Below, in pieces: positions 51,477 through 54,953 of a DNA stretch of 64,000 nucleotides (position 1 is the stretch's first letter; every line of letters starts with the position of its first letter). Position numbers and translations under genes: made by a program. The DNA is taken from assembly GCF_036345915.1 (NCBI RefSeq), contig NZ_CP107785.1, positions 1,550,001 through 1,614,000 on the forward strand, given 5' to 3'. The stretch is from Nocardia sp. NBC_00565 (GTDB taxonomy: Bacteria; Actinomycetota; Actinomycetes; Mycobacteriales; Mycobacteriaceae). A model generated the notes under the pieces. The model saw only the letters and a list, made by a program, of their open reading frames with translations. It did no database searches and was not told the DNA's origin.

Positions 51477-54400
51477 TTGTCGGTCTCGAGCCAGACGGTC
51501 GCCAACAAAAACCAGGTAGTCGCCGGTGTACCCGGCGCGCCGAAGCGGATTTCGTTCGCCAAGATTCGGGAACCGCTGGAAGTGCCGGGTTTGCTCGATG
51601 TGCAAACCGATTCGTTCGAATGGTTGATCGGCGCGCCGGAATGGCGGACCCGCGCCGCCGCGCGCGGCCAGGACAACTCGAGCGGTGGCCTGGAGGAGGT
51701 GCTCGAGGAGCTGTCGCCGATCGAGGATTTCTCGGGCTCGATGTCGCTGTCTTTCTCGGATCCTCGTTTCGAGGAGGTCAAGGCCTCCATCGACGAGTGC
51801 AAAGACAAAGATATGACCTACGCGGCGCCGTTGTTCGTCACCGCTGAGTTCATCAACAACAACACCGGTGAGATCAAGAGCCAGACGGTCTTCATGGGTG
51901 ATTTCCCGATGATGACCGATAAGGGCACATTCATCATCAATGGCACCGAGCGCGTCGTTGTTTCGCAGCTGGTGCGTTCGCCGGGTGTGTACTTCGGTCA
52001 CAGCGTCGACAAGGCCACGGAGAAGAATCTGCACAGTGTGCGGGTCATTCCGTCGCGCGGGGCTTGGCTGGAGTTCGATATCGACAAGCGCGACACCGTC
52101 GGTGTGCGTATCGACCGCAAGCGACGCCAGCCCGTGACGGTCTTCCTGAAGGCGCTCGGCTGGAGCGCCGAGCAGATCACAGAACGTTTCGGGTTCTCCG
52201 AAGTCATGATGTCGACGCTGGAGAAGGACAACACCGTCGGCACTGACGACGCACTGCTCGACATCCATCGCAAGCTGCGTCCGGGTGAGCCGCCGACCAA
52301 GGAGTCCGCGCAGGCACTGTTGGAGAACCTGTTCTTCAAGGAGAAGCGCTACGACCTGGCGCGTGTCGGTCGCTACAAGATGAACAAAAAGCTCGGCATC
52401 GGTACCACGTCGGCAACAGTGTTGACCGAAGAGGATCTGATCGCCACCCTCGAGTACCTCCTCCGCCTGCACGCGCGCGACAAGACCATGACGGTGCCCG
52501 GCGGTGTCGAAGTTCCGGTCGACGTCGATGACATCGACCACTTCGGCAACCGTCGCCTGCGTGTCGTCGGCGAGCTGATCCAGAACCAGATCCGGATCGG
52601 CCTGTCTCGCATGGAGCGCGTGGTCCGCGAGCGGATGACCACTCAGGACGTCGAGGCGATCACGCCGCAGACCCTGATCAATATCCGCCCGGTCACCGCC
52701 GCGATCAAGGAGTTCTTCGGAACCTCGCAGCAGTCGGTGTTCATGGACCAGAACAACCCGCTCTCGGGTCTGACCAACAAGCGTCGTCTCTCGGCGCTGG
52801 GCCCGGGTGGTCTGTCCCGTGAGCGGGCCAGCCTCGAGGTGCGCGACGTGCACCACAGCCACTACGGCCGCATGTGCCCGATCGAGACTCCGGAAGGCCC
52901 GAATATCGGCCTGATCGGCTATCTCTCGGTGTACGCGCGAGTCAATCCGTTCGGCTTCATCGAGACGCCGTACCGAAAGGTCGTCGGCGGCAAGGTTACC
53001 GACGATGTGGACTACCTCACCGCGGATGAAGAGGAGCGGTTCGTCCGCGCGCAGGCCAACTCGCTGGTCGGGGTGGACGGACAGCTCCTGGAGGACAAGA
53101 TCCTCGTACGACGATTCGGCGAAGAGGTCGAGTCCGTCTCGCCCGCCGAGGTCGACTACATGGATGTCTCCCCGCGGCAGATGGTTTCGGTCGCGACCGC
53201 GATGATCCCGTTCCTCGAACACGACGACGCCAACCGCGCCCTGATGGGTGCGAACATGCAGCGCCAGGCCGTGCCGCTGATCCGTTCCGAGGCCCCGATC
53301 GTGGGCACCGGTATGGAGCTGCGCGCCGCGGTCGACTCGGGTGATGTCGTCGTCAGTGCGAAAGGCGGTGTGGTCGAGGAGGTCTCGGCCGACTACATCA
53401 CCGTGATGGCCGACGACGGCACCCGCAAGAGCTACCGACTCCGTAAATTCGCCCGCTCGAACCAGGGCAACTGCGTCAACCAGCGCCCGATCGTGGACGA
53501 GGGGCAAACCGTGGCGGCCGGGCAGGTTCTCGCCGATGGTCCGTGCACCGAGAACGGTGAGATGGCGCTGGGCAAGAACCTGCTCGTCGCGATCATGCCG
53601 TGGGAGGGCCACAACTACGAGGACGCGATCATCCTGTCGCAGCGCCTCGTGGAAGAGGACGTCCTGACCTCGATCCACATCGAGGAGCACGAAATCGACG
53701 CCCGCGACACCAAACTCGGTGCCGAGGAGATAACCCGCGACATTCCCAATGTCTCCGACGAGGTCCTGGCCGATCTCGATGAGCGCGGCATCGTGCGTAT
53801 CGGCGCCGAGGTGCGCCATGGCGACATCCTGGTCGGCAAGGTCACGCCCAAGGGGGAGACCGAGCTGACCCCGGAGGAGCGGTTGCTGCGCGCGATCTTC
53901 GGTGAGAAGGCGCGCGAAGTCCGCGACACCTCGCTGAAGGTGCCACATGGTCAGTCCGGCAAGGTGATCGGTATTCGGGTGTTCTCGCGTGAGGACGACG
54001 ACGATCTGCCTCCGGGTGTGAATGAGCTGGTGCGCGTGTACGTGGCGCAGAAGCGCAAGATCCAGGACGGCGACAAGCTCGCCGGTCGCCACGGCAACAA
54101 GGGTGTTATCGGCAAGATCCTCGCGACCGAGGACATGCCGTTCATGCCCGATGGCACTCCGGTGGACATCATCCTGAACACCCATGGTGTGCCGCGTCGT
54201 ATGAACATCGGCCAGATCTTGGAGACCCACCTCGGGTGGATCGGCAAGGCGGGCTGGGAGATTCAGGGCACACCGGATTGGGCGCGGGCACTGCCCGCGC
54301 AAATGCAAGCCGTGCCTGCGAACAGCAATCTCGCCACCCCGGTCTTCGACGGCGCGCGCGAGGAAGAACTCGCCGGTCTGCTCGGATGCACCCTGCCGAA

Positions 54401-54953
54401 CCGCGACGGCGAGGTGATGGTCGGTGCGGACGGCAAGTCGACGCTGTTCGACGGCCGTTCCGGTGAGCCCTTCCCATACCCGGTTGCGGTCGGCTACATG
54501 TACATCCTGAAGCTGCACCACCTGGTCGACGACAAGATCCACGCCCGTTCGACCGGCCCGTACTCGATGATCACCCAGCAGCCGCTCGGTGGTAAGGCGC
54601 AGTTCGGTGGTCAGCGCTTCGGTGAGATGGAGTGCTGGGCCATGCAGGCCTACGGTGCGGCGTACACGCTGCAGGAGCTGCTCACCATCAAATCCGACGA
54701 CATCGCGGGACGCGTGAAGGTCTACGAGGCGATCGTCAAGGGCGAGAACATTCCGGAGCCGGGCATTCCGGAATCCTTCAAGGTGCTCCTCAAGGAACTC
54801 CAGTCGCTGTGCCTCAACGTCGAGGTGCTCTCCGCCGAAGGCGCCACGATCGAAATGCGCGATACCGACGACGACATCGACCGGGCGGCCGCGAACCTGG
54901 GCATCAACCTCTCCCGCAACGAAGCCGCCACCGTGGACGACCTACCGATCTGA
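51477..54953 (+). CDS. rpoB2: second RNA polymerase beta subunit, rifamycin-resistance type
   Basis: A complete 1158-residue beta subunit. In the rifamycin pocket the sequence is FGTSQQSVFMDQNN (residues 414-427) and LTNKRRLSALGP (432-443). Using E. coli numbers (residue + 92), L511 is Gln419, Q513 is Val421, H526 is Asn434 and S574 is Tyr482 (NIGLIGYLS); P552 is His460, while D516, R529 and S531 are kept. Changes at 511, 513, 526 and 574 are known in rifampicin-resistant mutants. No rpoC, rplJ or rplL is adjacent; gluconokinase follows. Nocardia species are known to carry such an rpoB2 that gives rifampicin resistance, and similar duplicated rpoB genes with H526N alter secondary metabolism in other actinomycetes. 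The enzymatic core is intact, so it should join alpha, beta-prime and omega. Confidence 0.95.
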   Translation: MSVSSQTVANKNQVVAGVPGAPKRISFAKIREPLEVPGLLDVQTDSFEWLIGAPEWRTRAAARGQDNSSGGLEEVLEELSPIEDFSGSMSLSFSDPRFEEVKASIDECKDKDMTYAAPLFVTAEFINNNTGEIKSQTVFMGDFPMMTDKGTFIINGTERVVVSQLVRSPGVYFGHSVDKATEKNLHSVRVIPSRGAWLEFDIDKRDTVGVRIDRKRRQPVTVFLKALGWSAEQITERFGFSEVMMSTLEKDNTVGTDDALLDIHRKLRPGEPPTKESAQALLENLFFKEKRYDLARVGRYKMNKKLGIGTTSATVLTEEDLIATLEYLLRLHARDKTMTVPGGVEVPVDVDDIDHFGNRRLRVVGELIQNQIRIGLSRMERVVRERMTTQDVEAITPQTLINIRPVTAAIKEFFGTSQQSVFMDQNNPLSGLTNKRRLSALGPGGLSRERASLEVRDVHHSHYGRMCPIETPEGPNIGLIGYLSVYARVNPFGFIETPYRKVVGGKVTDDVDYLTADEEERFVRAQANSLVGVDGQLLEDKILVRRFGEEVESVSPAEVDYMDVSPRQMVSVATAMIPFLEHDDANRALMGANMQRQAVPLIRSEAPIVGTGMELRAAVDSGDVVVSAKGGVVEEVSADYITVMADDGTRKSYRLRKFARSNQGNCVNQRPIVDEGQTVAAGQVLADGPCTENGEMALGKNLLVAIMPWEGHNYEDAIILSQRLVEEDVLTSIHIEEHEIDARDTKLGAEEITRDIPNVSDEVLADLDERGIVRIGAEVRHGDILVGKVTPKGETELTPEERLLRAIFGEKAREVRDTSLKVPHGQSGKVIGIRVFSREDDDDLPPGVNELVRVYVAQKRKIQDGDKLAGRHGNKGVIGKILATEDMPFMPDGTPVDIILNTHGVPRRMNIGQILETHLGWIGKAGWEIQGTPDWARALPAQMQAVPANSNLATPVFDGAREEELAGLLGCTLPNRDGEVMVGADGKSTLFDGRSGEPFPYPVAVGYMYILKLHHLVDDKIHARSTGPYSMITQQPLGGKAQFGGQRFGEMECWAMQAYGAAYTLQELLTIKSDDIAGRVKVYEAIVKGENIPEPGIPESFKVLLKELQSLCLNVEVLSAEGATIEMRDTDDDIDRAAANLGINLSRNEAATVDDLPI

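What the first reader, a model, noticed from the sequence alone, without database searches (positions are those of the whole stretch)
51477..54953. Free-standing rpoB2 with multiple rifamycin-pocket substitutions
Complete beta subunit with Gln at 511, Val at 513, Asn at 526 and Tyr at 574 (E. coli numbering), plus His at 552, all in or next to the rifamycin-binding site, while catalytic regions are intact. No rpoC, rplJ or rplL is near. Known Nocardia rpoB2 and duplicated rpoB genes of Nonomuraea-type actinomycetes (H526N) support rifampicin tolerance and, for the latter, effects on secondary metabolism. The strain probably makes two RNA polymerases; what the second transcribes is the open question.
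Basis: partly seen in the sequence, partly recalled or inferred. Interest (0 to 1): 0.9.

Follow-up and report, generated by a model that had tools for sequence, protein, structure and literature searches.

The report
Rifamycin-resistant spare RNA polymerase subunit
This Nocardia carries a second RNA polymerase beta-subunit gene with an altered rifamycin pocket, a kind of gene already known in its genus; sequence comparison suggests that the rest of the gene is repeatedly refreshed from the normal copy while the altered pocket is kept.

Summary
A complete beta-subunit gene at 51477-54953 (+) carries Q511, V513, N526, H552 and Y574. The genome has a second, housekeeping rpoB beside its only rpoC, 5.1 Mb away on the contig, 89.7% identical in protein. 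The genus is Nocardia, so this is Nocardia rpoB2, a kind described in 2006; the gene itself is no novelty.

What I did not find in print: (1) at least 65 of 150 Nocardia species carry rpoB2; its constant marks are Y574 (64 of 65) and Tyr/Phe/His at 552 (65 of 65), whereas N526 is in 22 and V513 in 17. (2) rpoB2 is a mosaic. Its pocket and other diverged segments form one rpoB2 lineage (36 of 36 copies), but its core is repeatedly overwritten from the host's own rpoB: in 31 of 36 genomes the longest silent-site match is to the own rpoB and not to any of 44 others, and a single rpoB2 clade for the core is rejected (AU p 7.6e-6). No 40-codon window from 398 to 557 is homogenised in any of 36. (3) This copy keeps the rpoB leader element.

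Best reading: a rifamycin-resistant beta subunit that shares the single beta', kept compatible by gene conversion.

The parts
51477..54953 (+). rpoB2, complete beta subunit, 1158 aa, TTG start
   Evidence: start and Shine-Dalgarno region align with those of the housekeeping rpoB
51265..51293 (+). predicted promoter: TCGACA (51265-51270), 17 bases, TAATTT (51288-51293)
   Evidence: aligned to the housekeeping rpoB promoter; TCGACA-type found in 20 of 24 type I and 5 of 13 type II rpoB2 upstream regions and in 0 of 45 Nocardia rpoB1; the tool's sigma-70 consensus scan did not list it
51295..51316 (+). 5'-leader element GGACGTTGCGCTGGCTGCCTCC shared with housekeeping rpoB
   Evidence: pattern in 148 of 150 Nocardia genomes at up to 3 mismatches; position read
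51462..51469 (+). probable ribosome-binding site GGGGAAGG before the TTG start
   Evidence: sequence; homologous stretch before rpoB1
52668..53147 (+). codons 398-557: rifamycin-pocket segment, not homogenised with rpoB1 in any of 36 genomes
   Evidence: dS to own rpoB1 0.56
51726..51907 (+). 182-nt stretch identical to the own housekeeping rpoB
   Evidence: codons 81-200: dS 0.052 to own rpoB1 against 0.139 between rpoB1 of G000 and G142
53958..54238 (+). 281-nt stretch (codons 828-921) identical to the own housekeeping rpoB: probable recent gene-conversion tract
53511..53671 (+). 161-nt stretch identical to the own housekeeping rpoB

Best explanation
This is the Nocardia rpoB2: a second RNA polymerase beta subunit whose rifamycin pocket is altered. 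It assembles with the single alpha, beta' and sigma supply of the cell and competes with the normal beta for beta'; when a rifamycin is present, RNA polymerase built on RpoB2 goes on initiating. The rpoB2 lineage arose once, at or before the base of the sampled Nocardia, has moved between loci, and is held together by gene conversion: tracts of the core (best seen at codons 678-917 and 994-1073, also 81-200) are copied from the host's own rpoB, which would keep RpoB2 matched to its partners, while copies that lose the pocket are not retained. Shown: the gene, its residues, single rpoC, the mosaic pattern. Inferred: assembly into a second polymerase, resistance in this strain, selection as the reason the pocket is spared.
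For: Two rpoB, one rpoC, one RbpA in the genome. Pocket residues. Trees: pocket codons 400-560 put all 36 rpoB2 on one side of a branch (SH-aLRT 97; FastTree 0.858); other diverged segments do so too (SH-aLRT 79; FastTree 0.953); core codons 640-900 need 20-21 rpoB1/rpoB2 switches, 19 of 36 rpoB2 have their own rpoB1 as nearest row, and one rpoB2 clade is rejected (lnL difference 1108, p-AU 7.6e-6). Longest run of agreement at third positions that vary among rpoB1: own rpoB1 beats all 44 other rpoB1 in 31 of 36 genomes, more than twofold in 16; exceeds the largest of 1000 permutations in 34 of 36 (counted). Third-position alleles private to one rpoB1 are shared by the own rpoB2 in 77 of 226 cases and by other rpoB2 in 606 of 7840. 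No window of codons 398-557 is at 97% or more in any of 36, against 14-16 of 36 for windows 678-917 and 20 of 31 for 994-1033. In eight fragmented assemblies both rpoB contigs end at the same offset (within 1 nt) beside the pocket, as expected for long identical tracts (G058, G070, G077, G080, G082, G083, G087, G133; read off). Purifying selection: dN/dS 0.03-0.10 in nine rpoB2 pairs. S574Y arose under rifampicin in E. coli lines (PMC7392344 passage) and is discussed as a resistance change in a scan (PMC7073797 passage).
Against: Five of 36 genomes do not favour the own rpoB1 in the run test (G127, G143, G073, G081, G075), and two of these show no excess run at all (G073, G075). Several own-nearest pairs in the core tree are far apart (0.07-0.165, including this genome at 0.099), so only part of the core is recent. 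Segment limits were chosen after seeing the identity profile. Spared segments also include the N-terminus, codons 201-357 and 918-993, which have no known drug contact, so sparing is not by itself proof of selection for resistance. Full-length trees disagree on type II (nt tree with type I, 0.972; protein tree with rpoB1, 0.994). No expression or resistance data for this strain.
Confidence: 0.85

Rival explanations
1. RpoB2 is mainly a specialised polymerase subunit (stress or secondary metabolism, 'stringent-like' RNA polymerase as argued for Nonomuraea rpoB(R)); rifamycin resistance is a by-product.
For: H526N and a Ser-to-Tyr change in rif cluster II are reported for Nonomuraea rpoB(R), which changes expression of many pathways (passages of PMC5431353); both are in this copy. 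Segments without drug contacts are also spared from homogenisation.
Against: 526 is H in 14 and Q in 29 of 65 rpoB2, so the residue argued to drive the Nonomuraea effect is not a constant of the family. No conserved neighbour genes across clades. Promoter and leader are of the rpoB kind, giving no sign of special regulation in this clade.
Confidence: 0.25
2. The core identity is due to selection on protein sequence and codon use, not gene conversion.
For: The core is the most conserved part of RpoB.
Against: Own rpoB1-rpoB2 third-position identity in codons 758-797 averages 0.90 while rpoB1-rpoB1 between species is 0.72; in codons 438-477 the order is reversed (0.62 and 0.86). Matched control with 44 other rpoB1 and private alleles.
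Confidence: 0.04
3. Independent duplications of rpoB in several Nocardia lineages with convergent pocket changes.
For: rpoB2 lies at different loci in different clades; type II keeps the leader and type I does not; the protein tree sets type II beside rpoB1.
Against: Trees of the pocket and of the other diverged segments each need one change only; type I and the window's clade share a TCGACA-type promoter that none of 45 rpoB1 has. The support for the second tree is modest (79).
Confidence: 0.12
4. Decaying extra copy without function.
For: One of 37 first-set copies reads with a stop (G092, at a contig of 4 kb).
Against: Open full-length frame here and dN/dS 0.03-0.10 among rpoB2 pairs; 30 of 37 copies span nearly the whole length, and the shorter ones mostly end at contig ends.
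Confidence: 0.03

Closest known systems
Nocardia rpoB2 (Ishikawa et al. 2006, N. farcinica; paper not held; known to me through passages of PMC10719064 and PMC5051949 and from memory)
   Same: Same genus; second rpoB apart from rpoC; altered rif clusters; groups with 35 other Nocardia rpoB2 in trees of the pocket and diverged segments.
   Different: Belongs to type II, a minority form (13 of the 37 copies whose upstream was read), which keeps the rpoB leader element (12 of 13 at up to 2 mismatches); carries S522 and H552 where type I mostly has A522 and Y552; Q511 is seen in this copy alone of 65.
Nonomuraea rpoB(R) (PMC5431353, passages read)
   Same: Second rpoB with H526N and a Ser-to-Tyr change in rif cluster II. 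That paper prints the latter as S531Y; in the 65 Nocardia copies 531 is S (63) or T (2) and Tyr stands at 574, which lies in cluster II, so I take 574 to be meant.
   Different: Different family of actinomycetes; shared descent with Nocardia rpoB2 was not tested.
Long-lasting concerted evolution of bacterial paralogues (PMC6053082, passages read)
   Same: Paralogues in one genome more alike than orthologues between species at silent sites.
   Different: The terms rpoB, RNA polymerase and Nocardia do not occur in that main text; here only part of the gene is homogenised and a functional pocket stays apart.

Membership tests
Nocardia rpoB2 | Second complete rpoB in a genome that has a housekeeping rpoB-rpoC | tested here: met
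Nocardia rpoB2 | Host belongs to Nocardia | tested here: met
   Same-genus handles match named contigs by length: G013 (133,186) N. anaemiae, G127 (9,122,433) N. suismassiliense, G143 (310,852) N. vulneris
Nocardia rpoB2 | Substitutions in rif clusters I and II | tested here: met
   Q511, V513, N526, Y574 and H552
Nocardia rpoB2 | Shares descent with other Nocardia rpoB2 | tested here: met
   36 of 36 on one side of a branch for the pocket (97) and for the other diverged segments (79); not so for the core, which is converted
Nocardia rpoB2 | Gives rifampicin resistance in its host | not testable with these tools
   No phenotype; gene deletion needed
Nonomuraea rpoB(R) | H526N plus cluster II Ser-to-Tyr | tested here: met
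   N526 and Y574; definition from passages of PMC5431353
Nonomuraea rpoB(R) | Common descent with Nonomuraea rpoB(R) | not tested
   No Nonomuraea sequence was fetched
Nonomuraea rpoB(R) | Switches global metabolism | not testable with these tools
   Needs RNA-seq

The most novel reading that the evidence does not exclude
rpoB2 is a two-speed gene. Gene conversion keeps re-domesticating the chassis, so that the resistant beta subunit always fits the host's current polymerase, while an rpoB2-specific module (drug pocket with invariant Y574 and aromatic or His at 552, N-terminus, codons 201-357 and the 918-993 insert) is shielded and kept for a job of its own: resistance and possibly altered promoter behaviour. 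It would be a rare case of a core-machinery paralogue held for very long as a mosaic by opposing conversion and selection.
Probability: 0.4. Interest if true: 0.7.

Novelty: new member of a known kind. Interest (0 to 1): 0.5.

Why it matters
rpoB2 is a natural case of an essential enzyme carrying drug resistance at no cost to the main copy. The mosaic pattern explains how such a spare subunit can stay compatible with a co-evolving multi-subunit machine, and points to Y574 and position 552, rather than H526N alone, as what makes an RpoB2. It also warns that rpoB typing or short-read assembly of Nocardia can mix the two genes, since both contigs break at the identical core.

Tried and rejected
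Promoter-consensus scan: it listed a different site (51176-51205), one found against 0.6 expected, so no support. Rfam and tRNA scans of the window: nothing. Arr (PF12120) in the own genome: no match. Conserved neighbours of rpoB2: the S15/CocE hydrolase gene upstream is shared by the five copies of the window's clade (G000, G142, G013, G141, G092); other clades have other neighbours, so no operon partner. Rival 'rifamycin-associated element' upstream: one paper search held no paper on the phrase at the top of its list and I did not pursue it. Shared derived origin with Nonomuraea rpoB(R) was left untested. Structure prediction was not run: it would not give residue distances.

Papers: passages only of PMC5431353, PMC10719064, PMC5051949, PMC13186243, PMC6053082, PMC7073797, PMC7392344; search listings otherwise. 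Ishikawa 2006 is not held. 'Not in print' for the mosaic rests, and for the leader element on one 12-base text search; subscription papers are mostly missing from that library.

Survey limits: 65 of 150 is a minimum, 37 copies read from listed matches plus 28 from fragmented genomes; 39 genomes were re-searched and the rest were not. In the family sample 349 genomes of 30 other genera were searched, two candidates scored per genome; six had two or more rows (G274, G308, G329, G341, G362, G452), in assemblies that are fragmented or, for G329, 79% complete; I did not look into them. Trees and run tests used 36 rpoB2 (G092 dropped for its stop), 45 rpoB1 and 16 outgroup rows chosen by me of the 80 named loci; the 28 fragmentary rpoB2 were used for residue counts only.

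Full report
What is there. The window is G000:C1:1550001-1614000 of a 9.71-Mb single-contig genome. The ORF at 51477-54953 (+) is a complete rpoB. A second rpoB sits at 6711973-6708467 (-) directly before rpoC. rpoC, rplJ and RbpA are found once each, and rplL once over its cut-off. Three same-genus handles match named contigs by length (N. anaemiae, N. suismassiliense, N. vulneris), so the genus is Nocardia; the species was not determined.

Residues. The window copy reads Q511, V513, D516, S522, N526, S531, H552, I572, Y574. Over 65 rpoB2: 574 is Y in 64 and C in 1; 552 is Y 51, F 8, H 6; 526 is Q 29, N 22, H 14; 513 is Q 42, V 17, T 4, N 2; 511 is L 28, M 18, S 10, F 8, Q 1; 522 is A 54, S 11. 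In 45 rpoB1: 511 L, 513 Q, 516 D, 522 S, 526 H, 572 I throughout; 531 S 44, N 1; 552 P 29, T 15, S 1; 574 S 41, T 4. So Y574 with Tyr, Phe or His at 552 is the hallmark, and the classical positions drift. S574Y was selected by rifampicin in E. coli culture lines (PMC7392344 passage), and a mutational scan discusses it in combinations (PMC7073797 passage).

Spread. At least 65 of 150 Nocardia species carry rpoB2. Among 349 genomes of other genera of the family, six had two or more rows, none looked into further.

Mosaic. Along the gene, silent-site identity between rpoB2 and the own rpoB1 jumps between two levels: averages of 0.45-0.57 in codons 1-80, 0.56-0.71 in 398-557 and 0.54-0.62 in 918-993, against 0.83-0.90 in 678-917 and 0.91-0.96 in 994-1073; rpoB1 orthologues of different species give 0.65-0.91 over all windows without this pattern (300 sampled pairs). 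In the window's genome, codons 81-200 have dS 0.052 to the own rpoB1, less than the 0.139 between rpoB1 of G000 and of its relative G142, while codons 1-80 have 0.98 and the pocket 0.56. One stretch of 281 nt and one of 182 nt are identical. In genomes such as G053, G032, G119, G104 and G121, runs of 224-294 variable third positions agree, with permutation maxima of 39-55 and best runs of 22-37 with any other rpoB1.

Trees. The pocket (codons 400-560) and the other diverged segments each give one rpoB2 group of 36 (SH-aLRT 97 and 79). The core (640-900) gives 20-21 switches and rejects one rpoB2 group (the test left two sets of identical rows free, and the segments were chosen after seeing the profile). 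In the core tree converted rpoB2 mostly fall among rpoB1, and the rpoB1 member's next neighbours are mostly other rpoB1 or rpoB2 that are themselves converted (17 pairs shown), which suggests copying from rpoB1 to rpoB2. Where the rpoB2 branch joins is not settled (parent support 0.58 and 0.61).

Control region. The upstream regions of the two genes of this genome align (score 191; best of 200 shuffles 92.5). A 17-base leader core, TTGCGCTGGCTGCCTCC, is found at up to 2 mismatches in 45 of 45 rpoB1 of the G set, 12 of 13 type II and 0 of 24 type I rpoB2, and in the named Mycobacterium (18 of 18), Mycolicibacterium (8 of 8), Rhodococcus (6 of 6), Gordonia (4 of 4), Tsukamurella, Williamsia and Lolliginicoccus (1 of 1 each), but not in Dietzia (0 of 2) or Corynebacterium (0 of 2). 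It sits just after the predicted -10, so it may be the transcript start; this is inference. TCGACA-type promoters mark 20 of 24 type I and 5 of 13 type II rpoB2, against 0 of 45 rpoB1; three of six Rhodococcus rpoB have the TCGACA type too, so rpoB2 may keep an older promoter form.

Neighbours. In the window: an S15/CocE hydrolase upstream and a gluconokinase downstream, with a TetR-like regulator, a lipoprotein, a transporter and a Ser/Thr kinase further upstream. Only the hydrolase is shared by all five copies of the clade; other clades lie at other loci. No partner genes.

How it works. With one rpoC, RpoB2 must share beta' with RpoB1. The likeliest function is rifamycin-resistant initiation, as described for Nocardia rpoB2 (PMC10719064 passage). 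Shown: gene, residues, mosaic. Inferred: assembly, resistance here, selection. The sparing of segments without known drug contacts leaves room for a further RpoB2-specific role or for a simple barrier to recombination in diverged stretches.

Verdict. Ordinary as a gene family, but the mosaic is strong, testable and, in the searches named, not described. Interest 0.5.

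Noticed in passing
51295-51316 and upstream of rpoB in loci L036-L079: A 5'-leader element (GGACGTTGCGCTGGCTGCCTCC) just after the predicted -10 of rpoB is conserved across most Mycobacteriales sampled, with a shorter form (TTTGCGCTGCC) in Pseudonocardiales; function unknown.
   Followed up: partly
51204-54542 (-): A 1112-codon open frame antisense to rpoB2; probably a by-product of GC-rich codon use, not a gene.
   Followed up: no
33639-36874: Aromatic amino acid lyase followed by urocanase and amidohydrolases: looks like histidine utilisation.
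   Followed up: no
60468-62983 (-): DcuS/DcuR-like two-component pair.
   Followed up: no
L169, L170, L177, L184 (rpoB1 of G146, G144, G135, G075): Housekeeping rpoB with Thr at 574, the position that is Tyr in rpoB2.
   Followed up: no
L076: A record titled Nocardia sp. NRRL S-836 whose rpoB leader looks like that of Lentzea; the genus label may be out of date.
   Followed up: no
L149 (G092): rpoB2 on a 4-kb contig that reads with an internal stop: broken copy or assembly edge.
   Followed up: no
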